Shown here piece by piece: positions 9,643-32,581 of a stretch of DNA of 34,012 nt. The number at the start of each line of letters is the position of its first letter. Within the stretch, counting starts at the first letter, position 1. The notes beneath the pieces were generated by a model. That model searched no databases, was not told the origin of the DNA, and saw nothing but the letters and a program-made list of their open reading frames with translations. A program made the position numbers and the translations under genes. Origin of the DNA: Proteiniphilum sp. (GTDB lineage Bacteria; Bacteroidota; Bacteroidia; Bacteroidales; Dysgonomonadaceae); NCBI GenBank assembly GCA_011620695.1, contig WOYT01000087.1, forward strand, positions 1 through 34,012. Direction: 5' to 3'.

Positions 9643-12600
9643 TCAGAGCTTGGATGGGGATTTCCCGTAATAGGCCTTGAAGGCAGCACTAAAATACTTT
9701 ACACTGGAGAAACCACATAATTCACTCACCTCTGTCACTGTGTATTTACCGGACTGGATCAGTTTCAGTGCATGATTCAGCCGGATGCTCTTGATGAAAT
9801 CGATGGGCGACAAATCTGTCAGCGATTTGATCTTTTTATAAAGAAGTGAGGAGCTGACATTCATTTCTGAGGCAAAAGCCTCCTTGTTAAATTGTGAGTT
9901 GTCCATGTTTGCATGTACCACACTCACCGCTTTCTTCACAAACTGATCGTCCAATTCATTGAGATAGATCGATTCACTTTCATTTTCCCTTTCATCGATC
10001 AGACGGAGAGCTTTATCCCTGACAATTTTCCGGTTCTGGATGATATTGGATATGCGTTGATGAAGCAGAGTCATGTCGAACGGTTTGGTGAGATAATCAT
10101 CTGCTCCCAACCCCAGCCCCTGCAGCTGATCAGCTTTCTCGTTCAATGCGGTCAACAGGATGACCGGTATATGAGATGTTTCATAGGTAGACTTGATGAG
10201 CCGGCAGAGTTCAAACCCATCCATATTGGGCATCATCACATCAGAGATGATCAGATCGGGCATTTTTTTCCGGATCATATTCCAGGCAATTTCGCCATCG
10301 CTGGCGGCAGCGATTTTGTATCTGCTCTGCAGCGATTGCTGCAGGAACTCTGTCAATGTATCATTGTCTTCCACAATCAGCAAATAATCCTTCTGAGTAC
10401 TCTTCTGGTTGTTTTCAGTGATGGCCTCGACGTCTGTGGCTGGCAGGGATTCCTGTTTATTGTTACTTTGCCTGTTTACTGACAGCGATGGAGATAGTGT
10501 TGAAACCTCTTTATAAGGGACGGTGATCCGAAACAGGGAGCCTTCATTTTCCCTGCTCTCAAGTGATATGGTACCTTCGTGCATGGCTACGTAGTTTTTC
10601 ACCAGCAGCAGGCCGATACCTGAACCTACAATGGTTGAGTTGACCACATTGTCTCCCCTGTAAAACTCCCTGAAGAGTTTTTTCTGGGCATTTTCTGAAA
10701 TACCCAGGCCTTGATCTCTCACCTCCAGTACCCATCTGCTTGGTTCGCAGGTTAGTTTTATTTCAACCTCTCCTTCCGGATGAGAATACTTGATGGCATT
10801 CGAAATCAGGTTGTCTACCACTTTTTCAATTTTCAGTTCATCCACTGCTGTTATATAGGACTCACAATTGGAGTGAAAAAGAAGTTTTATTTTCTGTTTG
10901 GCTGCTGCAGCATCGAACATAGATTTCCGCTGACTCACTATCCTGACTATGTCGCTCATTATAAAGAAAGCCTGACCCTTGCCGATGTCCACTTTCTGGA
11001 AATCGAGCAGCTGGTTTGCTACGGAGGAAAGGCGACCGGCTTGTTCAGTAGCCAGATTGAGGAAATAACGTCCTTTCTCCGAGAGGTTCTTCTCCTTTTT
11101 CAGTTCCTCTATGGGCGCGTTGATCAGTGTAAGAGAAGTGCGGATGTCGTGTGCCATATTGGTGAAAAAGCTGATCTTATCTTCAGCATGTTGTTGCCTT
11201 ATGCGGTTGATGTAGTATCTGAGGATAAGCGCAAGAATAGCCGCGGTAAAGATAAAGAGCAGCAAACGAAACCAGATTGTTTTCCACCAGGGAGGGGTGA
11301 TCTGAATCAGCAGAGAACGCTCCTGGATAATCTGTTTCAGGGAGTTGTCGTACATCCTGATTTTCAGTGAATAGTTGCCACTGGGCATGCTTGCATATGT
11401 GATTGCCCGGGAATTGGTCGGCTGTGTCCAATCTTCGTCAATCCCTTCCATTTTCCAGGCGAATTTCGATGAGAGTGCTGTTGTTCCGATAGACAAAATC
11501 TCAAGTGTAAGCGTGTTTTGGTCATATTTCAGTGATATCTCCTGCAATTCATCGAGCGGTGATGTAAGTGAAAAATGGGGATGGTTCCGTAATGAACGCC
11601 CTGATATGACGATATCCTGGAAATAAATTCTCCCTCTGGAGGGTGAAAAAAGCATTGCATCCGGTTCAAACATCAGTGCACCGCTGCTGGTGCCCCAGAT
11701 GAGCTGACCGTTAGCAAGCTTTATGGATGCATTCTGGTTGAATGAGACATTGAAAAATGAAGGCAGAGAGGAGAAAATTTCAATATTCTTCTCTTCCGTA
11801 TTGAATTTGCAAAGCCCCGACTCAGTCCCCAGCCAGAGGTGTTTACCTTCCCTGAGGATACAGTTCACATAGTTGGAAAGTAATCCCTCATTGGTAGTGA
11901 ATTTTTCTACAGTGTTATCCCTCAGGTTATAGCGCACCAGTCCGTCGCCAGAAGTTGCCATCCATACATTGTCTCCAATGATGATCAGGTCATACAGGAG
12001 ATATCCCTCCAGGATTGTCCGTGTACGGCCCGAATGAGTGTTCAGCAGACTCAGTCCGTAGGTGCAGGCAAGCAGAAGATTCCCCGGTGAGAGTTCCGTA
12101 AATGCATAGACCGGTTGAAATGGATAGGCCTTGAAACGCTTCTCACTTTCGATGTAACGGAAGATCTGACCCAACGGACTGCCCATCCAGAGATCCCCAT
12201 TACTATCTCTGTAAATATCAAAAATATAGTCATTTGTCATGGATGAGGAGCTATTTTCGCTCGAATGGTGGGCAATTTCCCTGCCGGATTCACCATCGAT
12301 GACATAGACGCCAGAAGAATAGGTGCCTGCCCAGATGTTGCCATTTAGGTCTTCACATAGTGAAAGGAAAACCTGCGCCTGTTCCTGCAGGTTCTGATAA
12401 TAGGTGCGCCAGCTATTTGTAGTCTTATTCCAGCAGCTCACACCGTTATTGGTTGCGAACCATATGTTGCCTCTGCTGTCTTCCAGGACTTTGTTCACAT
12501 TATCATTGCTCAGTGAGTTGGGGTTGTTGATCTGATGAGTAATTTGTGTAACCTCTGCCGATTCCTGATCAAAATAGGAAAGTCCGCCGCTGTAGGTACA

Positions 12601-13542
12601 TACCCAGATACGTTTGTTCTGATCGAGGAATATGTCATAGACCCCGTTCCCTTTCAGAGAGAGCGGATTGTCGGGGTTTTCCTTGTAGATATTCAAAACC
12701 TGTCGTCCGTCGTTGGTCAGTTCCCAGATCCCCTGTCCGTCAATCCCGATCATCACTGTGGTGTCAGTATTAGCCACAATAGCCTGAACGGGTTGTTTGG
12801 GAAAAGGATCTAGTGATGGTTTTGTTAAAATATTTCTGGATACATCATAGAGATACAACCCGTCGGAATTGGTCCCTATCCAAAGCTGCTCATCCGAATG
12901 GTTGTAGTATAATTTTGTGACCTTTAATTCGTTATCTTCTTCATATTTGTAGAGTTGCCTGTCTGTGAGGGAATGGGTGTTCATCAACCAGAATCCGTTA
13001 TTGGTGGCCATCAGCAGCTGTACCTCATCAATCCAGACGAAATCATGCAGATCTGCATATTTTTCTTTTCCTATTGTAATCAGTTTGTTATCCTGGTATT
13101 TGTACAAACCGGTGGATGCAGCAATCAGGATGGACCCGTTTTTGTCAACAGCAATCCTGTTCAGTACCAGATGGGTGTCATTCAGTGGTTTGCGGATGTC
13201 GATCAGCAGATCGAAACGATCGAACACAGCATTGTAGAGAAATATCTGCCCGTTATTGGTGAAAGCCAGGAGTGAGTCATTGTCGTATAGTAGTTTTGTG
13301 TAAATGATGTTGGGCGTTTCGTAGGGTAACTGATAGATATGGTAGCTGTTGTCTGTTAGCCGCAGTATGCCGCTCTTAGAGGATGCCCAGATAAAACCGT
13401 TCCGGTCCATACATACGGAAGCCACTTCCCGCATGCTGATTCCGTGAATGCTGTTGATATCATAGAATTTCACATTCGAGGAATAGCTGAAGGAAACGGA
13501 AAGAAGGAGAACGGCAATTATGAATCTGGTTTTCATCAACAA
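9643..13542 (-). CDS. Hybrid two-component system sensor/regulator of the locus
   Basis: A 1299-residue single-chain sensor and transcription factor. Order: signal segment 1-21; two-component propeller repeats about 25-650 (motifs such as GNIWFATNNGV and KHLWLGTESGL); Y_Y_Y domain about 690-748; membrane helix 755-777; histidine kinase with H798 in MAHDIRTSLTLI; ATPase with the N-box near 911 (NLISNAIKY), D943 in DQGLGI and the glycine box near 973; receiver domain about 1053-1160 with phospho-acceptor D1101 and K1153 (LTKPF); AraC-type HTH about 1200-1299. The periplasmic propeller would bind an oligosaccharide from the target glycan and switch on the neighbouring operons. All phosphotransfer residues are present. 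Either Met1 or Met3 could be the start. It lies between the two enzyme blocks and has its own promoter. Confidence 0.95.
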   Translation of the reverse strand: MLMKTRFIIAVLLLSVSFSYSSNVKFYDINSIHGISMREVASVCMDRNGFIWASSKSGILRLTDNSYHIYQLPYETPNIIYTKLLYDNDSLLAFTNNGQIFLYNAVFDRFDLLIDIRKPLNDTHLVLNRIAVDKNGSILIAASTGLYKYQDNKLITIGKEKYADLHDFVWIDEVQLLMATNNGFWLMNTHSLTDRQLYKYEEDNELKVTKLYYNHSDEQLWIGTNSDGLYLYDVSRNILTKPSLDPFPKQPVQAIVANTDTTVMIGIDGQGIWELTNDGRQVLNIYKENPDNPLSLKGNGVYDIFLDQNKRIWVCTYSGGLSYFDQESAEVTQITHQINNPNSLSNDNVNKVLEDSRGNIWFATNNGVSCWNKTTNSWRTYYQNLQEQAQVFLSLCEDLNGNIWAGTYSSGVYVIDGESGREIAHHSSENSSSSMTNDYIFDIYRDSNGDLWMGSPLGQIFRYIESEKRFKAYPFQPVYAFTELSPGNLLLACTYGLSLLNTHSGRTRTILEGYLLYDLIIIGDNVWMATSGDGLVRYNLRDNTVEKFTTNEGLLSNYVNCILREGKHLWLGTESGLCKFNTEEKNIEIFSSLPSFFNVSFNQNASIKLANGQLIWGTSSGALMFEPDAMLFSPSRGRIYFQDIVISGRSLRNHPHFSLTSPLDELQEISLKYDQNTLTLEILSIGTTALSSKFAWKMEGIDEDWTQPTNSRAITYASMPSGNYSLKIRMYDNSLKQIIQERSLLIQITPPWWKTIWFRLLLFIFTAAILALILRYYINRIRQQHAEDKISFFTNMAHDIRTSLTLINAPIEELKKEKNLSEKGRYFLNLATEQAGRLSSVANQLLDFQKVDIGKGQAFFIMSDIVRIVSQRKSMFDAAAAKQKIKLLFHSNCESYITAVDELKIEKVVDNLISNAIKYSHPEGEVEIKLTCEPSRWVLEVRDQGLGISENAQKKLFREFYRGDNVVNSTIVGSGIGLLLVKNYVAMHEGTISLESRENEGSLFRITVPYKEVSTLSPSLSVNRQSNNKQESLPATDVEAITENNQKSTQKDYLLIVEDNDTLTEFLQQSLQSRYKIAAASDGEIAWNMIRKKMPDLIISDVMMPNMDGFELCRLIKSTYETSHIPVILLTALNEKADQLQGLGLGADDYLTKPFDMTLLHQRISNIIQNRKIVRDKALRLIDERENESESIYLNELDDQFVKKAVSVVHANMDNSQFNKEAFASEMNVSSSLLYKKIKSLTDLSPIDFIKSIRLNHALKLIQSGKYTVTEVSELCGFSSVKYFSAAFKAYYGKSPSKL

Positions 13543-17545: not shown

Positions 17546-17594
17546 AGGAGCTTTTATATTAAGAATCAATTGTAATGATTTGATATTGAATCCA

Positions 17595-18518
17595 TTATTC
17601 CGACATGTTTTTGAAATAGGGCATCTTGGGCAATTCGCCAAAGCCATAGAACTTTTGCGCATTGAGGCCGAGGAAGAGTGCTTTTTCTGTTTCCGTGAGC
17701 AGAGTTGATCGGATGACGAAGTCGTACGACATCCTGTAGGTGATGGCCACCATGGTGCGGGGATAATCGGATCCCCACATCAGCTTGTCGATACCTACCA
17801 GCTCGATAGCTTCGCGGATAGCCCAGATGGCTCCGATAAAGGGATAAAACTCTTCGTGGAAGAGCCAGGTAATGCCACCCGACTCAATCATCACATGTTC
17901 GTGTCGGGCCAGTTTGATCTGCTCCTGCCACTCCTTTCGTGTCACCATACCGAAATGACCGATGGCAATCTTCAGTGAGGGGCAGGCGGCAATGATCTCC
18001 TCCATCTCTGCCACCTGTGTAGCACCGTCGGCCAGGTCGATGGAGAGGATGATCCCCTTCTCCTGCATCATGTGAAAGAGCTGCATCATCTCCTCCCCGG
18101 TGAGCCATGTTCTGCCTGTATCGGTGATCAGCCGTTGTGCGGGAATCTTGATGGCTCTGAATCCGTTTCTGATCAGCTCTTCCGCCTCCCGGCAGAAACC
18201 GGGCTTTCGCAGGTCCACCATCCCGCAGCAGAGAAACCGCTCCGGGTAGGTTCGCTGCACCTCCACCAGGTAGTCGTTCTGGTTCCCGTCGATATACTCC
18301 TGTGTGATCACGCTGGCTGCCACCTGCGCGTAATCCATGTTGGAGAGAAATATCTCCGCGCTATTTCTGCCGTCGGTCATGTAGGGTGGCAGCATCTGCC
18401 GCACCTCACCCATGAACAGCGATTTCCCGTTCGTCAGTGTTTTGATCTGCCGGCCATTTACCTCTGCATCCTGTGACAGCCAGAGGTGGGCATGTGCATC
18501 TATCAACAGGTAATTCAT
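17595..18518 (-). CDS. Amidohydrolase-family sugar lactonase, probable L-galactono-lactonase
   Basis: The start is set at 18518 (MNYLLIDAHAHLW), giving 307 residues; the longer reading from 18569 would overlap the upstream gene by more than 50 bases. ATGA at 18518-18515 joins this start to the stop of the dehydrogenase, indicating translational coupling. The protein is an Amidohydro_2-type barrel: metal-binding HxH at H9/H11, a conserved His in IGHFG, and the strand-8 Asp D251 in MWGSDYPR. No signal peptide, so cytoplasmic. Members of this group hydrolyse sugar lactones such as L-fuconolactone and L-galactono-1,5-lactone. Together with the next two genes it matches the L-galactose pathway of Bacteroides vulgatus (lactonase, MDR dehydrogenase and AKR adjacent). 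An L-fuconolactonase role is the main alternative. Confidence 0.75.
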   Translation of the reverse strand: MNYLLIDAHAHLWLSQDAEVNGRQIKTLTNGKSLFMGEVRQMLPPYMTDGRNSAEIFLSNMDYAQVAASVITQEYIDGNQNDYLVEVQRTYPERFLCCGMVDLRKPGFCREAEELIRNGFRAIKIPAQRLITDTGRTWLTGEEMMQLFHMMQEKGIILSIDLADGATQVAEMEEIIAACPSLKIAIGHFGMVTRKEWQEQIKLARHEHVMIESGGITWLFHEEFYPFIGAIWAIREAIELVGIDKLMWGSDYPRTMVAITYRMSYDFVIRSTLLTETEKALFLGLNAQKFYGFGELPKMPYFKNMSE

Positions 18519-19537
18519 GATCCAAAGCGTATTAAATACCTGAAAACCTTCCCGGGGTTTGATGACCATTGCTGCAGTGCAGCCTCTGCCTCCCCGGGGG
18601 CAAAGATACCGGAGATCAGCTTATCTACCGGGCAGCGCCTCTCCCTGAGATAGGCGATCACAGCCCTGAAGTCGGCCGGGAGGGCGTTGCGTGACCCACG
18701 GATGTCGAGCTCCTTTTTTACGAAATATTGGGTGTCGAAAGCGATCTCTTCCTTCGCGTAACCGATAAAGACCACCCTACCAGTGAAAGTCGCTGCATCA
18801 ATGGCTGTGCGGTAGGTCTCCGGGCGGCCCACCGCCTCAATCACCACGTCGGCACCCCGTTGTCCGCTGATCTCCATGATCCGTGCCCTGACATCCTCTT
18901 TCGACGAGTTGATGGTCTCGCGGGCTCCCAGCTCTGCAGCGAGGGAGAGCTTCTGTTCATCGAGATCCACGGCTATCACCCGGGCACCTCTGATTGCGGC
19001 ACGGATGATGGCACCCAAGCCGATCATGCCGCAACCGATTACCATTACCCGATCGGTGTCCTTTACCCTTGCACGATCCACGGCGTGAAATCCGACACTC
19101 ATCGGCTCCACCAACGCCATATCACGCACGGAGAGCTGATCGTCTGTGAGCACCTTCTCCCATGGCTGCGTGATATATGCCGCCATGGCTCCGTTGCGTT
19201 GTACCCCCAGTGTCTGGTTGAACTCGCAGGCGTTGGGCCGGTCGTTCAGACAGGCAGGACACTTGCCACAACTGGAGTAGGGATTGACGGTAGCATGCAT
19301 GCCGGGACGAAGGTGTGAAGGTACATCCGGCGCAACCGCTTCTATCACGGCTCCTATCTCGTGGCCAGGGACGACTGGGTACCGTGCCAGGGGATTGGCA
19401 CTCCTGAAGGTGTTGAGGTCGGAGCCACAAAAACCGACATATCCAATCTTCAGCAGAACTTCACCTGCCTTAATTTCCGGTTTGGGCTGCTCGGTGAGCT
19501 CTACGGTTCCCGGTGCGGTTATTTGAATTGTTTTCAT
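18515..19537 (-). CDS. Zinc-dependent medium-chain dehydrogenase, probable L-galactonate 5-dehydrogenase
   Basis: A 340-residue cytoplasmic MDR enzyme. Catalytic zinc ligands: C37 (GFCGSD), H59 and E60 (PGHE), and E144 (VEPMSVG). Structural zinc: four Cys at 90, 93, 96 and 104. The Rossmann motif is GCGMIG at 168-173, and D191 at the end of the next strand predicts NAD+ use. The family includes sorbitol, threonine and galactitol dehydrogenases and the L-galactonate oxidoreductase that makes D-tagaturonate. Context suggests the last role: it lies between the lactonase (overlapping by four bases) and an L-galactose dehydrogenase-like enzyme. D-tagaturonate would then feed the hexuronate pathway. 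If the sugar were L-fucose, a dehydratase would be expected nearby and none is seen. The exact substrate is inference. Confidence 0.72.
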   Translation of the reverse strand: MKTIQITAPGTVELTEQPKPEIKAGEVLLKIGYVGFCGSDLNTFRSANPLARYPVVPGHEIGAVIEAVAPDVPSHLRPGMHATVNPYSSCGKCPACLNDRPNACEFNQTLGVQRNGAMAAYITQPWEKVLTDDQLSVRDMALVEPMSVGFHAVDRARVKDTDRVMVIGCGMIGLGAIIRAAIRGARVIAVDLDEQKLSLAAELGARETINSSKEDVRARIMEISGQRGADVVIEAVGRPETYRTAIDAATFTGRVVFIGYAKEEIAFDTQYFVKKELDIRGSRNALPADFRAVIAYLRERRCPVDKLISGIFAPGEAEAALQQWSSNPGKVFRYLIRFGS

Positions 19538-19564
19538 TTGTTGTTTCTTTTTTGTTTGATGTTC

Positions 19565-20497
19565 TCAGCTGTTCACCCAGGTATCCCGAAATCCCGGTTC
19601 CAGGATGGTGTGTACCTCCTGCAACAGCTCCTCGTCGAGAGGTGTATTGGCATACCTGACAGTTCTCACCACGTTCTCCGGGCTGGTGGAACTGAACAGC
19701 GTGGTAGCAATCCGGGGATTGGACGTGCTGTAGCTTACCGCCAGCTGTTCAATGGAGACCCCCTTCGATTTGCAGTAGTCAACTGCTTTTCTGGCGAGTC
19801 GCTGCAGGGCTGCAGGTGCAGGGTGCCACGACGGTGCTCCCCGTTCGGTCAGCAACCCCATGGAGTAGGGTGATGCATTGATGACTCCCACCCGCTGTGC
19901 CTCAAAAAAATCGAGGTAATCAGCCAGCGAGTCATCATTCAGCGTGTAATGACAAAAGGAGAGAATACTTTCCACGGTCCCTGGCGGAACATGTTCGATA
20001 ACATACCGGAAGTGACGCAGATTCAGGTTGGTGATGCCGATATGCTTCACAATACCCTGGCTACGCAGTTCAGCCAGGGCCGGCAATGTTTCATTGCAAA
20101 CCTGTTCCAGGTCGGCAAACTCAATGTCATGTACATTGATCAGATCAATCTGCTCCACACCCAGTCGTTCCATACTCTCAAAGACGCTCTCCCGTGCCCT
20201 GGAGGCGGAGTAATCCCACTGGTTCACTCCATCCCTGCCGTAGCGGCCCACCTTGGTGGAGAGATAGTAACGGCTTCGTTCCACCTCTCTCAATGCCTTG
20301 CCCAGTATGCTCTCAGCTTTCAGGTACCCGTAGTAGGGAGAGACATCGATGAAGTTGATGCCCTGCTCCAGGGCAGTGTGTACTGCACGGATGCCCTCTT
20401 CCTCCTTCAGCGGGTGGAAAACAGCGCCGAGTGAGGAGGCGCCGAAGCTGATTTTGGAGAGCTTCATACCGGTATGGCCCAATTCCCTGTATTCCAT
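19565..20497 (-). CDS. Aldo/keto reductase, probable L-galactose (or L-fucose) 1-dehydrogenase
   Basis: A 310-residue cytoplasmic AKR. The catalytic tetrad is D51, Y56, K82 and H123 (in FIDVSPYYG, LSTKVG and NVHD). The N-terminus (LGHTGMKLSKISFGASSLG) is very like L-galactose dehydrogenases of plants and bacteria. The reaction would be L-galactose plus NAD+ to L-galactono-lactone. It is 27 bases before the MDR gene and 49 after GH95, so it should be co-transcribed with the enzyme that releases the sugar. L-fucose, which differs only at C6, could also be accepted; both sugars fit the family. Confidence 0.75.
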   Translation of the reverse strand: MEYRELGHTGMKLSKISFGASSLGAVFHPLKEEEGIRAVHTALEQGINFIDVSPYYGYLKAESILGKALREVERSRYYLSTKVGRYGRDGVNQWDYSASRARESVFESMERLGVEQIDLINVHDIEFADLEQVCNETLPALAELRSQGIVKHIGITNLNLRHFRYVIEHVPPGTVESILSFCHYTLNDDSLADYLDFFEAQRVGVINASPYSMGLLTERGAPSWHPAPAALQRLARKAVDYCKSKGVSIEQLAVSYSTSNPRIATTLFSSTSPENVVRTVRYANTPLDEELLQEVHTILEPGFRDTWVNS

Positions 20498-20546
20498 CGT
20501 AAATTCTCTGTTTTGTTTGTAGTGGCCGGTGTATGTAAAGACCTGC

Positions 20547-22970
20547 CTATTTTCTCCTTATCTGATAACTCTTTCCCGCCTCGGTCAGGAGATCATACTC
20601 ATAGACATTACGGGTATTACTCCTCCCGGCCGTAACCGCCTCATCGCTGATCAGGGGTGCTTTCACCGCTTCCTTGTGAAAGAGTGGGTTGGGGTTTTCA
20701 CCTGATGCGGAGGTGAGTCCTTTCCCTTCCAGCGGTACGTAGGAACGGATGCGCAGGTTCCCACCGAGACGAGAGGTGAGCGTAGCTTCACGCAATGTAC
20801 CCTCTTCCCATTGCATCGCTACTTCGAACCCTCCGCGGGCGACGATACCTGATACCGATCCACTTTCCCAGTTATCCGGCAGTGCCGGCAACAGATGTAC
20901 CGCCTCATCATGGCTCTGCAGCAACATTTCTGCCACACCTGCGGTCAGCCCGAAATTGCCGTCGATCTGAAAGGGAGGATGGGCCGTGAAGAGGTTGGGA
21001 TAGGTCCTTCCGTTTCTGTGCTCTCCGGGACCGGCCAGCGTCAGCATGTGCTGAATGATCCTGTAGGCATGATTGCCATCCAGGAGACGAGCCCAGAGGT
21101 TTACTTTCCAGCCGATGGACCAGCCGGTGGCCTGGTCACCGCGATAGAGCAGCGACTGTCTGGCGGCAACAAACAGTTCCGGTGTGGAGTAGGGAGATAT
21201 CTGGTTTCCTGGATAGAGACCATAGAGGTGTGACACATGGCGATGTTCGTCCCGGGGGTCATCCATATCTTCCAGCCACTCCTGCAGCTGTGAGTGTCTG
21301 CCGATCTGCATCGGCGGCAACCTGTCGGCCATGTTGCGCAGCTGACGGCTGTAGGCCGGATCCCTGCCCAGCAGGTCATTTGCTGCGGCTGTACGGGTGA
21401 ACAGGTCGAACAGCAACTGGTTGTCCATGGTGGTACCGGCCGTCACGGGCCCATGTTCGGGTGATACGGAGGGGCAGGCCACCATCCATCCGTTGTCGGG
21501 ATGTGAGACCAGCGTGGAGAGGAAAAAGTCAGCAGCACCCTTCATCACGGGGAAGTATCTCTCCAAAAAGGCTTTGTCACCGGTGAAGAGGTAGTGCTCC
21601 CAGAGGTGCTGGCAGAGCCAGGCCCCGCCCGTTGGCCACATCCCGGCAGCGGCAAAGTCGACCGGGCCGGTGATTCTCCAGATATCGGTGTTGTGGTGCA
21701 CCACCCACCCATTGGCGTTGTACATGCTGCGTGCGGTCTGCTGTCCCGTGTGACTCAGCTCCTCCATCATCCGGAAGAAAGGTTCATGGGTCTCCGTGAG
21801 GTTGGTCACCTCTGCTGGCCAGTAGTTCATCTCGGTATTGATGTTAAGCGTATACTTGCTGTCCCATGCCGGGTGTGTGCTGTTGTTCCAGATGCCCTGC
21901 AGGTTGGCCGGCTGTCCCCCCGGCTGTGAGGAGCAGATCAGCAGGTAGCGTCCGAACTGGGTCAGCAGCGTCACCAGTGCCGGATCCTGACTGTCGGCAA
22001 ATGACGCGATCCGTTGTGTAGTGGTCAGCTTCTGGCTCTCACCCTGTTCTCCCAGGTCAAGAATGAAGCGGTGAAACTGCCGGCCGTAGATCTCACTGTG
22101 TTTTTTGAGTGCCTTGCTGTATCGCTTTGTGAGGGCAGCATCCAGCAAAGCAGAAGCTACAGCGGCAGGATCCCTGTCGATGGTTTTATAGTTCCGGAAG
22201 CTGGTCCCCACCGACAGGTAGAGAATTGCTTCCGTGGCGTCGGTAACACGGATCCTCTCCTCGCTCACCTCCACTGTACCCCCTGTCTGTCTGATCGCGG
22301 TATGTATCTCATATTCAATTTTTCCGTTGATCCCCTCATGATCGACACCTCTGCCCCTCAACACCAGCCTGTCGCCTCTCTTCATGACGGTGTGTTGCGA
22401 TGGGTTCCGGTAGGCTGCTTCAAATGAGATGCTTCTCTTTTTGTCGGCTGTCAGGCGCAGGATGATCACGTCATCGGCAAAAGAGGAGAAGAGCTCGCGG
22501 CTGTAAGTAACACCTCCCACCCTGTAGCGTGTGGTGGAAACCGCTCTCTCCAGGTCCAGTTCGCGGTAGTAATCCCGGTAATCCTGGTGCCCCTCAAAAC
22601 GGAGCAGCAGGCTTCCGGCTGTCTGGTAGGGCATGCCATGCGGTCCCCCGAAAAAGGTTTCGTTAATTCTTTTCTCCGCTTCTCCATATTCTTTCCGGAA
22701 GATCAGATCCTGCACTTCCGCTAGCGCTCCGGCCGCTTTGGGGTTGTCGTTCCGGTAAGGTGATCCGCCCCAGATGGTCTCCTCGTTGAGCTGGATCTCC
22801 TCCTCCGCGGGATTGCCGTAGACCATTGCCCCCAGTCTGCTGTTGCCCAGGGGGAGTGCTTCCTCCCACTGCTTCGCCGGCTTGTCGTACCAGAGCTTCA
22901 GATCCTGTGCCGGCAGATGGGTAGTAAATAGGAGGGTTAGTATCGTGAAAAATAGTTGTATTCTGTGCAT
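20547..22970 (-). CDS. Glycoside hydrolase family 95, probable alpha-L-galactosidase (or alpha-L-fucosidase)
   Basis: An 807-residue exported protein with a signal peptide at 1-21. Order: N-terminal beta domain from about 24 to 270 ([27 protein letters not shown] split over 26-52), helical linker, (alpha/alpha)6 barrel about 320-690 and C-terminal beta domain. Catalytic features: the Asn pair N376/N378 in TLNIN ahead of MNYWPAE, and acid E564 in [11 protein letters not shown]. Many GH95 alpha-L-fucosidases have His just before this Asn pair (DYHxNIN); here it is T374. As I recall, the equivalent Thr in a Bacteroides ovatus GH95 from the complex-xylan locus gives preference for alpha-L-galactose. 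The L-galactose-type catabolic genes directly downstream agree. It begins 12 bases after the GH31 stop. Confidence 0.88.
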
Positions 22971-22982
22971 TCTCTCTTTTTA

Positions 22983-25610
22983 TCAATCAATTTTTAAACT
23001 TTTTTCCTTACCGTGATAGGTGATGATAACGGCTGATTCATTCTCATCGGCATCTTTTTTTGTTTCAGGCTTTACCAACCGTAGACGAAAGGTCCGGGTT
23101 TGTTCCATACCCGGAAATGACCCTTCTCTATTTCCGATGGTCAAGGTCGATTCAGCCTCATTCCATTTCAGTTCAATGGTACTGAAGAGACCCGTTTCAT
23201 AGTGATAATTGTCTCCCTCGTCTTCATAGAGTGTGAAGGAGGCATCTCTCCCCGGATAGATGCAAATCTCCAAAGGTTCGTCACTCTGCTCGGATGTGAA
23301 CTGTCTGGCGGGTCCCATCGGGATGATGGATCCTGCCTTGACAAAGAGGGGGATGGCGGTGAGATCGACAGGAACCTCCAGGAGTCTTCCTCCCTCAAAT
23401 TGTTCCCCGCTCCGGAAATCGAACCACCCCTTCTCCTGTTCGGGAAGATAGAGCGACCATTTTTTTGCACCTGGCTCAGTGACCGGTGCCACCAGGATGG
23501 AGGGACCGAACATGAACTGATGCTTTTGTTCCAGTGCTGCGGGGTCATCCGCAAAATCCATCACCAGGGGGCGCATCAGGGTAGATCCGCTGAAGCTGAC
23601 ACGCGATGCTTCCGAATAGATATAGGGGAGCAGCCGGTAGCGCAGATCGAGGGTCTGTGACACCAGTTGTTCCACCTCTTCGCCATACTGCCAGGGTTCG
23701 GTGTTACTCATGTAACCGTGTACCCTCAGCAGTGGGAAGAAGGCAGCAGTCTGAAACCAGCGGATAAACAGCTCGTGATAAGCGGGGTTGCTGTACTGGT
23801 CAGCGGGCCGGAAGAAGCCGCCGGCATCACAGGTCCACCAGGGCAGACCGGCACTCATCTGTCCCAGCCCCGCAGTGATCTGGCGGCGAAGTGTCTCCCA
23901 GTCGTGACCCACATCGCCCGACCAGGTGGCGGTGCCATACCGCTGCATGCCGGAAAAGGCACTGCGTGTGAGGATGAAGGTCCGCCGTCCGGGATCATCT
24001 CTGCGTAACCCTTCATAAACCGTCTTGTTCACATAGAGCGGGTAGACATTGCGCAGAAGTTCGCCCGGCAAGGTACTGTTGCGAATTTTCCGGTTCCGTA
24101 GATCATCGTTCTCCGGTTCGGTGGCATCCAGCCACCAGGCATCCATACCGTAGGGCAGCATCTTCCCGGAAAAGTGCTTCCAGTAGGCAGCAGCAGCATC
24201 GGGATTGAAGAAATCTATCCAGTCGCTGCCGGGGATATAATATCCCTTCTCTTCCATCACTTTTCCTACCTCAGATTGTTTGTCAATTTTCGACCAGACA
24301 GAGATCATCATGCGCATGTTCATCGCATGCAGCTGACGAACCATCTCCGCCGGGTCGGGATAGCGCTCCTCGTCAAAGCGCATGGCGTTCCAGCCGTACT
24401 TACCCCAGTATTGCCAGTCCTGCACGATCACGTCGACCGGGAGCCCCCTCTCGCGGAAGGTGCGGGCGTTCTCCAGCAGCTCCTCCTGTGTATGGTAGCG
24501 CTCCCGGCAATGGATATATCCAAACGCCCAGAGTGGCAGCATCGGCGCCGGCCCGGTCAGTTCCCGGTAGCTGGCAATCACCTCATCGCCGGAGCCGGCA
24601 AAGATGGTATAATCGATTGCCTCTGCCACCGGAGAGGAGAGCACGGTCTCATTGGTGACCGCTCTCCAGTAGAGCTGCGGCCGGTCATGTTCTTCCCCCT
24701 CCACAATGACTTGATGGGTGCCTGCCGGCAGCTTCGCGATGAGTGAGGTGGTGGGTGGCAGCCAGATGTTGTTCACATCGACCAGGGTATCGCCGTCGAT
24801 CACCAGGTGATGCTTGCGGGCCATCGCCTGCCCCACGTCGAGCAGCAGTGCGTAGCTGCCGTCGGCGGGGAGTGTCAGTATGCCGGTGAAGCGGTTCATC
24901 TGCCTGGTCTCCCGTCTGTTGCCGCTGGTACCGGTCGCATCCACAGTAACGCTCTCCCCCCGGTCATCATTGCGATGCAGCGGCAGCACATTCTCCGCCG
25001 GGTTGAGGTCGGTGAGCCCGTAGTTGTTCCATAAGAGTCCATATCCTCTGCTGGAAAGGATGAAGGGAATGGATATCTGGCTGTTCACCTGTGTGAGTCG
25101 CCGGGACAATCCCCTGATGTTCAGATGACCGTCCTGGAACTGCCCCGTTCCGAACAGGTATTCGTCGGGTGGGGAGTCAAACCGCTGTGTCACTGTGTAG
25201 ACCGCGAGGTTATCCAGGCTGTCCGGCTCTATGATGCGTCCCCCGGCTTTTTCGCTCAGCAGAAGAGTTCCCTGCTGATCGGTGAAACAGAGGGTGCCGC
25301 TTTTCCTGTTGAAAATGGCAATAATCTTATCCAGCTCTATGCTGATCGTTTCTTCATTTTCAATGACCTTATAGGGGGGTGTTGCCACCGTTTCCGTGTA
25401 AATCAACTCTTCCGGGTAGAGGTCTGTTTCTGCTTTTTTGAAAGTGACACGGATGGTGCGCTCATTCAAAGGGATGAGATGAAGAGCACCCCCATCGGTC
25501 TCAATCATCACCCCTTTCCCGGTGTCATGAAATTGAGATTGGGATGTGGAGGTGAATGAGAGCAGGATCAAACTGCAGAAAATGAGTAAAACGTTTTTGT
25601 AAAGTGTCAT
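22983..25610 (-). CDS. Glycoside hydrolase family 31 alpha-xylosidase with PA14 insert (second copy)
   Basis: An 875-residue exported protein with a signal peptide ending near residue 24. The N-terminal beta-sandwich is interrupted at about 225-330 by a PA14-like domain (from RFTGILTLPADGSYALLLD to HQVIVEGEE), an insert known from alpha-xylosidases that act on xyloglucan oligosaccharides, such as the Cellvibrio and B. ovatus enzymes. The barrel nucleophile is D495 in AWWLDATEPE and the acid/base D566 in TWSGDVG. PA14 inserts help recognise longer oligosaccharides. It lies between the GH43-esterase fusion (37 bases away) and GH95 (12 bases). In a xylan context it would remove alpha-xylosyl decorations from arabinose side chains; a xyloglucan role is also possible. 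Confidence 0.9.
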   Translation of the reverse strand: MTLYKNVLLIFCSLILLSFTSTSQSQFHDTGKGVMIETDGGALHLIPLNERTIRVTFKKAETDLYPEELIYTETVATPPYKVIENEETISIELDKIIAIFNRKSGTLCFTDQQGTLLLSEKAGGRIIEPDSLDNLAVYTVTQRFDSPPDEYLFGTGQFQDGHLNIRGLSRRLTQVNSQISIPFILSSRGYGLLWNNYGLTDLNPAENVLPLHRNDDRGESVTVDATGTSGNRRETRQMNRFTGILTLPADGSYALLLDVGQAMARKHHLVIDGDTLVDVNNIWLPPTTSLIAKLPAGTHQVIVEGEEHDRPQLYWRAVTNETVLSSPVAEAIDYTIFAGSGDEVIASYRELTGPAPMLPLWAFGYIHCRERYHTQEELLENARTFRERGLPVDVIVQDWQYWGKYGWNAMRFDEERYPDPAEMVRQLHAMNMRMMISVWSKIDKQSEVGKVMEEKGYYIPGSDWIDFFNPDAAAAYWKHFSGKMLPYGMDAWWLDATEPENDDLRNRKIRNSTLPGELLRNVYPLYVNKTVYEGLRRDDPGRRTFILTRSAFSGMQRYGTATWSGDVGHDWETLRRQITAGLGQMSAGLPWWTCDAGGFFRPADQYSNPAYHELFIRWFQTAAFFPLLRVHGYMSNTEPWQYGEEVEQLVSQTLDLRYRLLPYIYSEASRVSFSGSTLMRPLVMDFADDPAALEQKHQFMFGPSILVAPVTEPGAKKWSLYLPEQEKGWFDFRSGEQFEGGRLLEVPVDLTAIPLFVKAGSIIPMGPARQFTSEQSDEPLEICIYPGRDASFTLYEDEGDNYHYETGLFSTIELKWNEAESTLTIGNREGSFPGMEQTRTFRLRLVKPETKKDADENESAVIITYHGKEKSLKID

Positions 25611-25647: not shown

Positions 25648-27972
25648 TTATTTGCCCAGTATGGAGAGCATCTGATCGGCGTAGCGTTCACCCAGCATCC
25701 TGTAGCCTTCGGTGGAGAAGTGCAGCCGGTCCGGTCCGGCTTTACAGCCTGCTGAAGAGATGACATTGCTGTTGGGGATCACTTCGGGCAAGGTCTGGAT
25801 GATTTCGTTCATGGATGCACATACACCCACCTGGTCGGCAACATATTCCTGGTAGTTCTCCTTCTGTGTTTCAAACTGAATCAGGTATGTTTTGACCACT
25901 CCGTTGAAGTCAAATTCCACCTTCGCACTGCCCCTGGGTGAGTCGGCCTGCGTTACCTTCACTTTCACCTTCTTGTGATCGGATGAGGCGGTGACTGTTG
26001 GTGCCGTTGTGGTTCCGACTGGTAGCTTGCAGGTGGTTTCATAGATGTTATATCCTACAATTCCATTGGCATTGGTCGATCTCACTGGAGTTTCGGGCAG
26101 TTCCACCTTTTCCCCGTTAATGGTAATGGAGACCGATGGAACCACAGGAGGGGCAATTTTCTTCTTTTTTGAACTGAAGCCGAGTCCGATCAAGTCGAAG
26201 AGTTCGGCCGACTCCTCACCCTCTGCCACCAGGAAGATGGCATGTTTCCGGTCGAGGTGGTCCACAAACCGGGATACATCGATGGAGAACTGTGTTGTTT
26301 GCTCTGCTGCATTGGCAGGCACAACAATCTCTCCGATCTTCGTCCCTTTCCAGGGCTCATTTTCCCAGGGACCATCCAGCCATACGTTCACTTTGAAGGA
26401 TTTTGCAGTCCTGGGGGTCAGGAACAGGTTGAATGCCGTTTTGTTCCCTTTTTTGGTAGCCTTGAATGCTTTCAGCCCTTTGGTATCTCTCTTGAGCCCG
26501 CCAAAACCGAAGTACTTGTATCCGATGATATTTCCGTTCTTCACATTGCCAATGGGCATATGGTTATTCCAGATATCCCATGCATCCTGCTGGATAGAGA
26601 TATCTGAAAGATAACAGGCATATCCTGCCGAGTAATATTGATACGGGTCGAGTCCGTAGATGTGGAATCCTTCCGAGGTGACCTCCGCACCCTTGTATTC
26701 TCTTCCCTTGTTGTCTTTGACGCTCCATATATTGTCGTCAGCGTAGGGATCGTATGCTCTGATGGTAACCGTTCCTCCTTCCGACACCGGTTTTTCATCC
26801 CATTCCACCTTAACGGGAGCCACCATCGGCTGGCGTGCGAAACCGAAGCTTCGTGGAGGCCTGTGGTAAAAGACGTACCACTGGTCGTTGATCAACTCGA
26901 TGCTGCCATGCGTGTTGTGTCCGGCATAGCTGGTTTCAATGGCCGATCCATCGCGGTTCAGTATTGGAGCTCGAGAGTCGACCAGCACCCCTCCGCTTCT
27001 CCAGGGACCCAGGGGTGAGTCGCCTACGGCATAGCGCAGGGTGGAGTTGGAGCTTTCAACACCATATTCCGGTCCGGAGTAACCACTGAAGACGGTGACA
27101 TACTTATTCCCCACCTTGCGGATGGAGGATGCTTCAAAGAAGTTAAATGTTTTGAGATCCTGATCAGGATAGATCTTGGGGTAGGTGGTGCCCTCAGGGT
27201 CGCGGATCACGCCATATCTGGCACTGGCAGGAATGAAGTAACTGATCACCTCTGTTCCCGGTCTGAGGGAATACATGGTTTTCTGATCCAGCTGGGCGGC
27301 CAGTGATCGCTGAAAGCCCCAGTATCCGTAAGCCCTGAAACCAATCTCATAATCGGGATCATTCGGATCGTCAATATATTCAATATAGACGGCCGGGTCA
27401 AAGCCCATGATACTCCCCTCAACCGTTCTGGTACCGTCCTCGGTGAGGTTGATGGGGGCAAAAGGACCGTCAGGGCGGCTGCCTCTGGCGACCATTGCCT
27501 CTCTGCGCGGACCACGGCTGTGCGGATAGAGGTAATACTCTTTTGTTCCATCCTTTTTTCTCACCTCCACCAGGTCGGGGGCATACATGACGTCCCACTG
27601 ACCATCCACCTGATAGGTGAAGATAGGGCCTTCGTCACGCCACTGGGAGAGGTCCTCCACAGGTGCTGACCACATCCTGATGTCCGGTCCGCAATAACTG
27701 GTGAAACGTACATCGTGTGAGCCTATAATATAGGCCCTGTATTTGCCTGGATTGTCGGGATCCTCAAAGACGCGGGGTTCCCCGTCGGGCAGATGCTCCC
27801 AGAGTGGCAGATAGGGGTTTCCAGCTCCATGGTGTACGAATTTCTTATTTGGACTGTATGGCGGGGTTGGATTGTTTTGTCCCGAAACCACAGCAGTTGA
27901 AAAGAGAAACAGTGCAACGCAGAGCATCATCAGTTTCTCCCTTTTCGCAATAAATCCTGAATTTTTCATCAA
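25648..27972 (-). CDS. Atypical GH43 fused to the C-terminal part of a CE6/SGNH-type esterase
   Basis: A 774-residue exported protein. The GH43 propeller covers about 45-405, with candidate acidic residues D63 (PDGEPRVF), D192 (GFDPAVY) and E280 (FFEASSIRK). A beta-sandwich of CBM6-like character covers about 435-600, and an Ig-like segment about 612-702. Residues about 706-774 look like the end of a CE6/SASA-type acetyl esterase, with the D748-H751 dyad in GPDRLHFSTEGYR. The esterase half holding the nucleophile Ser (GQSN-type block) is absent, so this tail cannot be a complete esterase. The GH43 part probably removes arabinose or xylose units. The start could be Met1, Met2 or Met15/16; the hydrophobic core follows KREKLMM. 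It lies 39 bases after GH115. Confidence 0.78.
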   Translation of the reverse strand: MMKNSGFIAKREKLMMLCVALFLFSTAVVSGQNNPTPPYSPNKKFVHHGAGNPYLPLWEHLPDGEPRVFEDPDNPGKYRAYIIGSHDVRFTSYCGPDIRMWSAPVEDLSQWRDEGPIFTYQVDGQWDVMYAPDLVEVRKKDGTKEYYLYPHSRGPRREAMVARGSRPDGPFAPINLTEDGTRTVEGSIMGFDPAVYIEYIDDPNDPDYEIGFRAYGYWGFQRSLAAQLDQKTMYSLRPGTEVISYFIPASARYGVIRDPEGTTYPKIYPDQDLKTFNFFEASSIRKVGNKYVTVFSGYSGPEYGVESSNSTLRYAVGDSPLGPWRSGGVLVDSRAPILNRDGSAIETSYAGHNTHGSIELINDQWYVFYHRPPRSFGFARQPMVAPVKVEWDEKPVSEGGTVTIRAYDPYADDNIWSVKDNKGREYKGAEVTSEGFHIYGLDPYQYYSAGYACYLSDISIQQDAWDIWNNHMPIGNVKNGNIIGYKYFGFGGLKRDTKGLKAFKATKKGNKTAFNLFLTPRTAKSFKVNVWLDGPWENEPWKGTKIGEIVVPANAAEQTTQFSIDVSRFVDHLDRKHAIFLVAEGEESAELFDLIGLGFSSKKKKIAPPVVPSVSITINGEKVELPETPVRSTNANGIVGYNIYETTCKLPVGTTTAPTVTASSDHKKVKVKVTQADSPRGSAKVEFDFNGVVKTYLIQFETQKENYQEYVADQVGVCASMNEIIQTLPEVIPNSNVISSAGCKAGPDRLHFSTEGYRMLGERYADQMLSILGK

Positions 27973-28011: not shown

Positions 28012-30558
28012 TCATTTCACCTTTTTGTCTGGGAACTTGCGGTTGCTTTCGGGTGGACCCAGATAGCTGGGTTTCAAACCACCCGTGTCGATTACTATTT
28101 TTTGCAGCACAATACCCGGATCCAGTACCCGATAGCGGAGGGTATGGATGCCGGGCCTGGTGATGGTGTGGCGGGTGGCCGACCGGATGATATGCTCTGC
28201 CTGCCACTGTCCCAGTTCACCACGGTAATGACCGTTGAAATTGACCCGCTGCGGAGCCTCTCCATCAAAGGAGACCTCATAGCGCAATCCTTTGTTGTCG
28301 TTGAAGTTGAGGGTTGGGGCCAGTAGCAGCTGTAGTTCGATCTCACCGGTGGTTTCGAAGAATATGTCATATTCCAGGTAAATTTCTTCATCGGGAGAGG
28401 GGTAGCCATTTTGTGGCAGGGTGGTTACACCGGAGAGCGTTTTACCGAAGTGGGGGATCACCTCCCAGTGGATGGTTCCTGTATGATGACTTCGGTTAAA
28501 ATGCTCTGCTTCAATGGAGACATAACCGTTTTGCTCCAGGAATATAAAATCAACAGCAGCCTCTTCCGGGGTGACATAGGTGACCCGGGGCATGATGTTG
28601 TGAGGTGGTTCTTGCCATGAAGTATATCCGATACGCGTTTGATCCATCATATGCGCCCATTTGCCGTCGGCGATGACTGTGTTGTATTCAACCTGCAACA
28701 GTGAGTCGCGTGCAAAGCACTTTTTTACCATATCGGCATACCGGTTGGCACGCAAATCTTTTTGTGCAGCCAGCTGCTGATTCTTTGCCACCGCGTAGTA
28801 CATCTCATAGAGGTTGCTGCAGGCATTGACCGGATAGAGTACCAGCTGATAATAGGCATCTCTGTATTCGGTCGGCAGTTGAGTATATATACGGAACGCA
28901 TCGAGCGCGAGGGAACGGTATTCGTTCACCACCCTTTCAAACTCACCGTAATGCTCAAGGCTGTAGGTGTGTTCATTCAACAGTTCCGGCGTGACCCTCC
29001 GGTTGTATTTCGGGTAGAGGGTAAGGATGCGGGCGATCTCCTCAGCGTATGATGCACCAAATTGTTGGGCAGCCCATTGCTCTGTATGACTCACCAGGTT
29101 TTGCGGGTTGAACTGTTTGGGATCCCAGGCCATATCGAGGAAGAAACTGATGGGATACTCCATTGGTTTAAGGTCTCCCACGTTCACGATCCAGAGCCTG
29201 TCCACCCCATGTTCATAGGCAAGATTCATCTGTTCCCATACGCGCTGTATGGGGTTGATATTGATCCATTTGGAGTTGCGGGGAGCCCCTACATAATCGA
29301 AATGATAATAGATGCCATAGCCGCCTATCCTGGGTTTGGCATTTATGTTGGGCAGCTTGCGGATATTTCCCCAGTTGTCGTCGCAATAGAGGAGCGTCAC
29401 ATCGTCCGGCACCCGCATTCCGTGGTCATAGTAATCCTGTACCTCTTTGTAGAGCGCCCAAACCTGCGGTGTCTGGTCGGCTTTCTTTCCGGTTACTTCT
29501 TCGATGATCTTTCGCTGATCCTTCACGATCTTTTCCAGCAGGGCGATGTTCACACCCTCTTCCATGGCTTCGTCGCCGTCACCCCGCATGCCGACGGTAA
29601 CCACTTTCTCCCACTCGCGGCTTCTTTCGATGCCATACCGCCAGGACTGTTTCAGTGCTTCGGCATTTTTGTTGTAGTCCCAGATATCGGGAAGGTTGTT
29701 CCGTGCCACATACCGGTGCCAGTCGGTCTGTGCCATTGCCATCGGCTCGTGGTGTGAGGTGCCCATGATGATCCCCATTTCGTTAGCCAGTATGCCGTTT
29801 TGCGGGTCATCATCATAAAAGGCACTGCCCCACATTGCCGGCCAGAGGAAATTGCCTCTCAGGCGCAGGATCAGTTCGAACACCTTCTCATAGAAGGCGC
29901 TGTTGAAACCACCGAAGGTGACTTTTGCCCAACCGCTCAGAGCTGGGGCTTCATCATTGAGGAAGATGCCGCGGTAGGTGACAGCCGGTTCTCCGTCACT
30001 GTAACTCCCCTTATGAAAATAGAGCGCCTCTTTTTTCTCCACCGGGACATCGGCCCAGTAGTACCAGGGAGAAACACCCATCTGTTCCGAGAGCTCGTAG
30101 ATGCCATAGACGGTTCCCCGCTTGTCGCTACCGGCAATCACAATGGCTTCGGCAACCCCCTCACAGGGGTTGGCTACCGATTCAATGAGAAACATCTCGC
30201 GCTTTTCTTTCAGTCTCGATGCGTCGAATTTCTTCTGCGCTATAAGTGCATCAATGGCTGAATGGGTGCCGATGGTCCCGATGATGATCAGCGGCATCTT
30301 CGCGGGAGCAAAAGAGCTTATCAGGTTGGGGGTGTGACCGGTTAGTTTTCTGTAATCGTTTTGCAAATCAGATACGGCACGCTGGATACCTTTGTCGGTA
30401 TTGGGATAAAGCAGAATGGAAGCAGTTACGCCCGCTTCATACAGCACCATGGTGTTGCTGTCATGTTGCGTGGTGATGAAACGCTCAACCGCGCCAAGTG
30501 GGCAGGCCAGGCAGCTCAGGGCAACGATCAGGCTAGTGATGATTTTTTTGCTGTTCAT
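28012..30558 (-). CDS. Glycoside hydrolase family 115 alpha-glucuronidase
   Basis: An 848-residue exported protein with a signal peptide at 1-23. Typical GH115 blocks follow in order: GSDKRGTVYGIYELSEQMG (143-161), FLNDEAP (199-205), GNFLWPAMWGSAF (235-247), MGTSHHEPM (265-273), GMRGDGDEAM (323-332), LLYCDDNWGN (389-398) and VGDLKPMEYP. D202, D327/D329 and E372 fall close to acidic residues I remember as important in a B. ovatus GH115 enzyme. A C-terminal beta-sandwich begins near GYVSIEAEHFNRS. GH115 removes alpha-1,2-linked (4-O-methyl-)glucuronic acid, including from internal xylose units, and is a strong marker for glucuronoxylan or glucuronoarabinoxylan use. It follows GH43 by 169 bases and precedes the GH43-esterase fusion by 39. 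Confidence 0.95.
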   Translation of the reverse strand: MNSKKIITSLIVALSCLACPLGAVERFITTQHDSNTMVLYEAGVTASILLYPNTDKGIQRAVSDLQNDYRKLTGHTPNLISSFAPAKMPLIIIGTIGTHSAIDALIAQKKFDASRLKEKREMFLIESVANPCEGVAEAIVIAGSDKRGTVYGIYELSEQMGVSPWYYWADVPVEKKEALYFHKGSYSDGEPAVTYRGIFLNDEAPALSGWAKVTFGGFNSAFYEKVFELILRLRGNFLWPAMWGSAFYDDDPQNGILANEMGIIMGTSHHEPMAMAQTDWHRYVARNNLPDIWDYNKNAEALKQSWRYGIERSREWEKVVTVGMRGDGDEAMEEGVNIALLEKIVKDQRKIIEEVTGKKADQTPQVWALYKEVQDYYDHGMRVPDDVTLLYCDDNWGNIRKLPNINAKPRIGGYGIYYHFDYVGAPRNSKWININPIQRVWEQMNLAYEHGVDRLWIVNVGDLKPMEYPISFFLDMAWDPKQFNPQNLVSHTEQWAAQQFGASYAEEIARILTLYPKYNRRVTPELLNEHTYSLEHYGEFERVVNEYRSLALDAFRIYTQLPTEYRDAYYQLVLYPVNACSNLYEMYYAVAKNQQLAAQKDLRANRYADMVKKCFARDSLLQVEYNTVIADGKWAHMMDQTRIGYTSWQEPPHNIMPRVTYVTPEEAAVDFIFLEQNGYVSIEAEHFNRSHHTGTIHWEVIPHFGKTLSGVTTLPQNGYPSPDEEIYLEYDIFFETTGEIELQLLLAPTLNFNDNKGLRYEVSFDGEAPQRVNFNGHYRGELGQWQAEHIIRSATRHTITRPGIHTLRYRVLDPGIVLQKIVIDTGGLKPSYLGPPESNRKFPDKKVK

Positions 30559-32326: not shown

Positions 32327-32581
32327 TTAGACTATTTTTTCCGAAAGATATACATTTTTGATGACAATCGGTTTATTACCTGATGACCAGAATCCGATGA
32401 TGTAGATGTGGGAGGGGTCCAGTTTCACCTGTTGGTCGCCGACCTGCTTGTACATGCTGTGCAGGTCGACCACTACACGGCGTTCACTCCCAAAATCGTA
32501 GATTGCCGGCTGTGACCAGTAATTATTTTCATCGAAGAGGCGAAAGGAGACGCCGGACTCGTTGTCGTTGTTACTACTGCC
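32327..32581 (-). pseudogene. Frameshifted C-terminal tail of the GH5 gene
   Basis: In a frame different from the GH5 reading, 84 codons run from about 32581 to the TAA at 32327-32329. They give a well-formed tail: GVSFRLFDENNYWS, a valine-rich strand, LDPSHIYIIGFWSSG and IVIKNVYLS. This is the closing beta-sandwich seen in many Bacteroidetes surface enzymes and binding proteins. Adding one A to the run at 32582-32584 would join it smoothly to GH5 residue 452 and make a 536-residue protein. Confidence 0.75.

What the first reader, a model, noticed from the sequence alone, without database searches (positions are those of the whole stretch)
17595..22970. A glycosidase and a complete three-step L-galactose oxidation cassette inside a xylan-type locus
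GH95, AKR, MDR dehydrogenase and amidohydrolase lie in a row with gaps of 49 and 27 bases and a 4-base overlap. The AKR has an L-galactose dehydrogenase-like N-terminus and an intact tetrad; the MDR has both zinc sites; the amidohydrolase has the HxH and Asp metal ligands. The trio has the same families and neighbour order as the B. vulgatus route L-galactose to lactone to L-galactonate to D-tagaturonate. Linking sugar release and sugar oxidation in one transcript within a glucuronoarabinoxylan locus suggests that L-galactose side groups of xylan are a real nutrient for this organism. I do not know of a description of this combination.
Basis: partly seen in the sequence, partly recalled or inferred. 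Interest (0 to 1): 0.82.

Follow-up and report, generated by a model that had tools for sequence, protein, structure and literature searches.

The report
Xylan locus with L-galactose oxidation genes
A Bacteroidales bacterium appears to carry, in one tight gene row, an enzyme that clips the rare sugar L-galactose off complex xylan and the three enzymes that then oxidise that sugar as food; each enzyme is of a known kind, but I found no paper describing their linkage to xylan loci.

Summary
In detail: GH95, AKR, MDR and amidohydrolase lie head to tail at 22970-17595 (minus strand) with the stated gaps. The AKR's five best solved relatives are all L-galactose dehydrogenases. [quoted passage not shown] ovatus PUL-XylL; its Thr370, Asn372, Asn374 and Glu501 are kept. 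The window is a PUL-XylL-type xylan locus.

Two corrections. The gene order is not that of B. vulgatus. The linkage is not unique: two further species of the window's genus have the same four-gene order, and in some Bacteroides (B. xylanisolvens XB1A among them) a differently ordered cassette stands directly beside a xylan locus. The two kinds lie far apart in an AKR tree, which suggests at least two recruitments.

Best explanation: GH95 frees L-galactose in the periplasm; the trio oxidises it to D-tagaturonate in the cytoplasm. Function is inferred; nothing was assayed. Weak points: no transporter among the 15 window proteins scanned, no Uxa/Uxu reductase or dehydratase family found in the 78%-complete genome, and GH29 'fucosidases' near the trio in 23 of 100 loci. 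Known parts, new linkage: a new variant.

The parts
20547..22970 (-). GH95, probable alpha-L-galactosidase; signal-like N-terminus (by inspection)
   Evidence: Pfam; best solved relative 4ufc, 1034 bits; T374, N376, N378, E505 stand at Thr370, Asn372, Asn374, Glu501 of BACOVA_03438
19565..20497 (-). Aldo-keto reductase, probable L-galactose dehydrogenase
   Evidence: 431 bits over the full length to 7lh6 'L-galactose dehydrogenase'; the next four solved relatives bear the same name; tetrad residues invariant in 19 of 19
18515..19537 (-). Zinc MDR dehydrogenase, probable L-galactonate 5-dehydrogenase (to D-tagaturonate)
   Evidence: Pfam; 34% over 284 columns to E. coli LgoD; zinc ligands conserved
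17595..18518 (-). Amidohydrolase, probable L-galactonolactonase; start taken at Met18 of the ORF 17595-18569
   Evidence: Pfam; AF2 model mean pLDDT 88.8, nearest 4i6k, 4dlf, 4do7
22983..25610 (-). GH31, 12 bases upstream of GH95
   Evidence: a 57% relative lies inside the trio in L114
13727..17545 (-). GH3 multi-domain protein; start probably 17545 (signal-like MKQISLGTLLL), 49 bases after the amidohydrolase; the longest ORF is 13727-17662
9643..13542 (-). Hybrid two-component system (HTCS) regulator
6935..9346 (-). GH31, 60% to a GH31 of the B. xylanisolvens xylan locus
5407..6798 (-). GH43-CBM6
3395..5341 (-). GH97, 54% to the GH97 of the B. xylanisolvens xylan locus
773..3307 (-). GH9-like (weak match)
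25648..27972 (-). Protein with a C-terminal SASA esterase match
28012..30558 (-). GH115
30728..32314 (-). GH43 with GH43_C2
32473..33936 (-). GH5, 64% to the GH5 of the B. xylanisolvens xylan locus

Best explanation
The four genes are one part of a PUL-XylL-type operon for complex (glucurono)arabinoxylan. The secreted GH95 removes terminal alpha-L-galactose from xylan side chains in the periplasm. After import, the AKR oxidises L-galactose to L-galactono-1,5-lactone, the amidohydrolase opens the lactone to L-galactonate, and the zinc MDR oxidises C5 to give D-tagaturonate, which enters the hexuronate route (altronate, KDG, KDPG). Shown here: gene content, order, conserved catalytic residues, conservation across species, recurrent linkage. 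Inferred: substrates, reaction order, co-transcription, localisation, transport.
For: AKR: five best PDB relatives all named L-galactose dehydrogenase (292-431 bits), the sixth 91 bits. LguA, in one cluster with known L-galactose dehydrogenases, showed no activity with L-fucose (PMC12632266, passages). GH95: best solved relative is the xylan alpha-L-galactosidase; the Thr370 position is T in 59 of 65 GH95s compared, window included, and H in 6 of 65. MDR resembles LgoD. Same four-gene order in 2 further species of the genus, with SusD, GH10-CBM4 and GH8 in one of them. In Bacteroides the cassette stands beside a run of GH43, GH3 and GH97 genes in 7 of 20 regions fetched (not drawn at random), and beside xylan-type genes in XB1A and GM023. 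Co-occurrence: 20 of 21 AKR-bearing genomes have such a GH95, against 39 of 295 overall. A PfkB-type kinase, a KDPG-aldolase-family gene and an MFS gene stand side by side in the own genome.
Against: No PF01232 (UxaB/UxuB type), PF04295 (UxaA) or PF03786 (UxuA) match in the own genome, 78% complete. None of the 15 window proteins scanned is a transporter, though 37 of 100 loci compared hold an MFS gene. The amidohydrolase scores 29 bits against the 400-bit cut-off of the L-fucono-1,5-lactonase model and has only weak solved relatives by sequence. Only 3 of 80 named AKR loci have a GH95 within the flanks held, at most 10 kb. GH29 genes are in 23 of 100 loci. Thr370 is shared by 7kmq and 2rdy, so it does not prove specificity. 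In the own family 16 of 16 other regions fetched with the trio show no match to the window's GH95.
Confidence: 0.82

Rival explanations
1. The trio and GH95 serve L-fucose: GH95 is a fucosidase and the AKR, lactonase and MDR form an oxidative L-fucose route.
For: GH29 genes (23 of 100 loci) and RhaM-type mutarotases (22 of 100) lie near the trio in relatives; the amidohydrolase weakly matches an L-fucono-lactonase model and resembles 4dlf/4do7 in fold.
Against: AKR groups with L-galactose dehydrogenases and LguA showed no L-fucose activity; a trio-linked GH29 is in only 4 of 21 AKR genomes and was not matched in the own genome at E 1e-100; C5 oxidation of L-fuconate would not give a hexuronate intermediate (established chemistry).
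Confidence: 0.08
2. The trio uses L-galactose, but from another source such as pectic RG-II or xyloglucan; its place in a xylan operon is incidental.
For: The trio occurs in many other contexts; the GH95s near it in L062, L069 and L078 fall in a different GH95 clade from the window's.
Against: The other window glycosidases fit a PUL-XylL-type locus; order kept in 3 species of the genus; some Bacteroides cassettes also stand beside xylan-type genes.
Confidence: 0.08
3. The cassette is a relic or not expressed with the PUL.
For: No Uxa/Uxu family matches in the draft genome.
Against: Intact frames, kept catalytic residues, and 85-90% identity of AKR, MDR, lactonase and GH95 to the two sister species.
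Confidence: 0.02

Closest known systems
B. ovatus / B. xylanisolvens PUL-XylL (PUL 43): Rogowski 2015 PMC4491172 and Despres 2016 PMC4855328, passages of both
   Same: GH31, GH97, GH95 alpha-L-galactosidase, GH115, GH43s, GH3 and HTCS; GH5 as in the GH5_21 form; GH10-CBM4 in the sister locus L224
   Different: The published B. ovatus locus starts at bacova_03417; the L-galactose trio is not named in the passages seen. In the window the trio is inside the row, directly after GH95.
B. vulgatus L-galactose pathway (Hobbs 2014, not held; BVU_0219 and BVU_0222 through PMC12632266; lactonase BVU_0220 and the reactions recalled)
   Same: Same enzyme families and, by inference, the same reactions
   Different: Gene order: by locus tag two genes lie between AKR and MDR in B. 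vulgatus, none here.
Luteolibacter LG18 lgu cluster (PMC12632266, passages)
   Same: An L-galactose dehydrogenase related to this AKR and an L-galactonate dehydrogenase
   Different: The lgu cluster also holds altronate dehydratase, tagaturonate reductase and KDPG aldolase; no glycosidase or lactonase is named in the passages seen.
E. coli LgoD, L-galactonate oxidoreductase
   Same: MDR family, zinc-ligand pattern, KKE/GSRNA.P.DF stretch
   Different: 34% identity; no glycosidase among the annotated genes within about 1 kb upstream and 13 kb downstream of it in K-12.

Membership tests
GH95 alpha-L-galactosidase (BACOVA_03438 type) | GH95 catalytic domain with Thr370, Asn372, Asn374, Glu501 | tested here: met
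   T374, N376, N378, E505
GH95 alpha-L-galactosidase (BACOVA_03438 type) | Releases L-galactose, not L-fucose, from corn xylan | not testable with these tools
   needs assay
L-galactose dehydrogenase (AKR) | Closest relatives are L-galactose dehydrogenases; intact AKR tetrad | tested here: met
L-galactose dehydrogenase (AKR) | L-galactose preferred over L-fucose | not testable with these tools
   needs assay
COG3618-type sugar lactonase | Amidohydrolase_2 fold with HxH, His, Asp metal ligands | tested here: met
   lactonase activity itself untested
NCBIfam L-fucono-1,5-lactonase equivalog NF052480 | Score over the 400-bit cut-off | tested here: not met
   29.2 bits
L-galactonate dehydrogenase (MDR) | Zinc MDR with catalytic and structural zinc ligands, LgoD-like | tested here: met
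   only 34% identity to LgoD
PUL-XylL-type locus | GH31, GH97, GH95, GH115, GH43, GH3 and HTCS together | tested here: met
   relatives in XB1A
PUL-XylL-type locus | SusC/SusD pair | tested here: inconclusive
   none among 15 window proteins scanned; SusD present in the sister locus L224
Complete L-galactose catabolism | Tagaturonate reductase and altronate dehydratase in the genome | tested here: not met
   PF01232, PF04295, PF03786 not matched in the 78%-complete genome; PfkB kinase and KDPG-aldolase family present

The most novel reading that the evidence does not exclude
Bacteroidales have recruited an L-galactose oxidation cassette into glucuronoarabinoxylan loci more than once, making xylan-borne L-galactose a dedicated nutrient; and the same cassette marks other, still unnamed alpha-L-galactosidases, for instance the DUF5703 proteins and some GH29 enzymes that sit near it elsewhere.
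Probability: 0.4. Interest if true: 0.6.

Novelty: new variant of a known kind. Interest (0 to 1): 0.5.

Why it matters
Release of L-galactose from corn xylan by a GH95 is known (PMC4491172, passages), but none of the papers I found says where the freed sugar goes. The linkage gives a testable answer in culturable gut species (in B. xylanisolvens XB1A the cassette ends about 300 bases before the first GH43 of the xylan locus) and offers the trio as a genomic marker for finding further alpha-L-galactosidases.

Tried and rejected
Chance neighbourhood: rejected, order kept in 3 species of the genus. Thr370 as sole proof of L-galactose specificity: rejected, since 7kmq (recalled as a Xanthomonas enzyme) and 2rdy have it too. 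No listed paper held 7LH6 (10 of 14 listed). B. vulgatus and B. ovatus sequences were not reached by name; XB1A stood in. The Fisher tests are not corrected for relatedness and the cut-offs were my choice; with stricter GH95 cut-offs the overlap falls to 17, 15 and 12 of 21. My note gives an identity of the AKR to 7lh6; no call computed it, so it is left out.
Full report
Check of the observation. The four ORFs are at the stated coordinates and strand. GH95 (20547-22970), AKR (19565-20497), MDR (18515-19537) and amidohydrolase (17595-18569, more likely 17595-18518) follow each other with gaps of 49 and 27 bases and an ATGA overlap. GH31 precedes GH95 by 12 bases, and GH3 follows the amidohydrolase by 49 bases if it starts at 17545, where a signal-like peptide begins. 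Families are clear in Pfam. Catalytic residues are kept: AKR tetrad in 19 of 19, MDR zinc ligands in 80 or 81 of 81, amidohydrolase metal ligands in 71 or 72 of 72 (distinct sequences from the loci, window included).

What the enzymes are. The AKR matches 7lh6, named L-galactose dehydrogenase, over its full length with 431 bits; the next four solved relatives bear the same name with 292-337 bits, and the sixth has 91 bits. The GH95 matches 4ufc with 1034 bits. 4ufc is BACOVA_03438, which released only L-galactose from corn xylan and had trace activity on fucosylated oligosaccharides; its Thr370 contacts O6 and is His in a fucosidase (PMC4491172, passages). The equivalent residue is Thr in the window; over 65 GH95s compared it is Thr in 59 and His in 6, the Asn372 position is Asn in 57 and Asp in 8, and Asn374 and Glu501 are in 65 of 65 (at least two rows come from one genome fetched twice). 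7kmq and 2rdy also have Thr, so the residue alone does not decide. The MDR is 34% identical over 284 columns to E. coli LgoD, L-galactonate oxidoreductase, and shares the KKE/GSRNA.P.DF stretch. The amidohydrolase has no close solved relative by sequence; its model (mean pLDDT 88.8) is nearest in fold to 4i6k and to 4dlf/4do7, COG3618 amidohydrolases of Burkholderia multivorans, which I recall as the L-fucono-1,5-lactonase. It does not reach the NCBIfam L-fucono-lactonase cut-off (29 against 400 bits).

The locus. The window also encodes GH31 (two), GH97, GH43 (two), GH3, GH115, GH5, a GH9-like protein, a SASA-type protein and an HTCS. B. xylanisolvens XB1A has relatives of most of these in its xylan locus: GH31 60%, GH97 54%, GH5 64%, GH95 56%, GH115 50%, GH43-CBM6 45 and 53%, HTCS only 25%. 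PUL-XylL of B. ovatus has GH31, GH97, GH95, GH115, GH43, GH3 and an HTCS (PMC4491172, passages). So the window is a PUL-XylL-type locus. SusC/SusD are not among the 15 window proteins scanned; the sister locus L224 continues past GH5 into GH10-CBM4, a DUF5627 protein and SusD.

Relatives. In 295 genomes of the order the AKR (E 1e-60) is in 21. GH95 (E 1e-200) is in 39 of 295 and in 20 of those 21; GH97 (E 1e-160) in 28 of 295 and 14 of 21; a trio-linked GH29 (E 1e-100) in 16 of 295 and 4 of 21. With stricter GH95 cut-offs the overlap is 17, 15 and 12 of 21. Relatedness is not corrected for. Across 100 loci (19 G-handle regions, the 80, and the window; some genomes occur twice) the clusters with MFS, GH29 and RhaM members occur in 37, 23 and 22 loci; one member of each was checked in Pfam, and for GH29 a second one.

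Own genus and family. The AKR is in 36 of 101 genomes of the family. Two genomes of the window's genus, G391 and G374, have GH95-AKR-MDR-lactonase in the same order in the same kind of locus (AKR 90 and 88%); no GH115 match shows in the G391 stretches and no GH3 in the G374 stretch. The other 16 regions searched have the trio without a match to the window's GH95, 7 of 16 with a DUF5703 gene. The AKR tree (114 distinct rows) groups the window with these two (support 1.0) inside a clade of 22 tips (0.999).

Bacteroides. The AKR is in 72 of 158 genomes of the genus of B. xylanisolvens. In XB1A the order is a LacI gene on the other strand, AKR, lactonase, MFS, MDR, then about 300 bases to the first GH43 of the xylan locus; GH95 lies 42 kb from the AKR. 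GM023 has AKR and GH95 about 42 kb apart on one contig. Of 20 further regions fetched, picked partly for likeness to XB1A, 7 show the cassette beside a run of GH43, GH3 and GH97 genes (2 of these 7 without an MFS match), 1 shows GH3 only, 12 show neither. The published PUL-XylL starts at bacova_03417, and PUL 43 is given as BXY_29170-29370 without such genes (PMC4491172 and PMC4855328, passages; figures and supplements not seen). The window and Bacteroides cassettes differ in gene order, and their AKRs join only at the midpoint root of a tree without outgroup (114 of 114 tips), which suggests at least two recruitments. In L114 a GH31 57% like the window's stands inside the trio, and in L062 a GH95 does.

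Mechanism. Shown: content, order, residues, recurrence. Inferred: secreted GH95 frees L-galactose; import; oxidation to the lactone, hydrolysis, oxidation to D-tagaturonate; then altronate, KDG and KDPG. In the own genome a PfkB kinase, a KDPG-aldolase-family gene and an MFS gene are adjacent, but the families of UxaB/UxuB, UxaA and UxuA were not matched. The genome is 78% complete in 157 contigs, so this is a gap, not a disproof.

Against the reading. LguA, which groups with known L-galactose dehydrogenases, showed no activity with L-fucose (PMC12632266, passages), which helps; but GH29 neighbours in relatives keep an L-fucose role open for some loci. Nothing here was assayed.

Novelty. Searches listed no paper that, by title or abstract start, joins L-galactose oxidation genes with a xylan locus. 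Searches listed 20 of 32, 15 of 22 and 15 of 35 papers. Passages were read in PMC12632266, PMC4491172, PMC4855328 and PMC11784079 only. Hobbs 2014 is not held. Enzymes, pathway and PUL are known; their linkage is a new variant as far as these searches reach.

Noticed in passing
L065, L079, L080, L083, L099; L228-L230, L232-L234, L240 (some of these are the same genomes): In several Bacteroidales the trio lies near a DUF5703 protein, in the five named loci also with a SASA-cluster neighbour; by eye the C-terminus of the L083 protein resembles GH95, so it may be an unnamed alpha-L-galactosidase.
   Followed up: partly
L043, L044, L045, L047, L055, L058, L114 and others: GH29 'fucosidase', RhaM mutarotase and MFS permease recur near the trio (23, 22 and 37 of 100 loci).
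   Followed up: partly
L114:3831-9520: A GH31 57% identical to the window's upstream GH31 sits between AKR and lactonase.
   Followed up: partly
window 13727-17545: GH3 protein of unusual make-up: CBM6 match inside the GH3_C stretch, then Fn3-like, Big_2 and GH43_C2 regions.
   Followed up: no
L226 and L234 (genome G368): One genome of the window's genus carries two trio cassettes in different contexts, one with GH29 and RhaM, one with DUF5703.
   Followed up: partly
G133 and G306: A GH95 of another clade lies about 26-27 kb from the trio on the same contig (for G306 judged by equal contig length).
   Followed up: no
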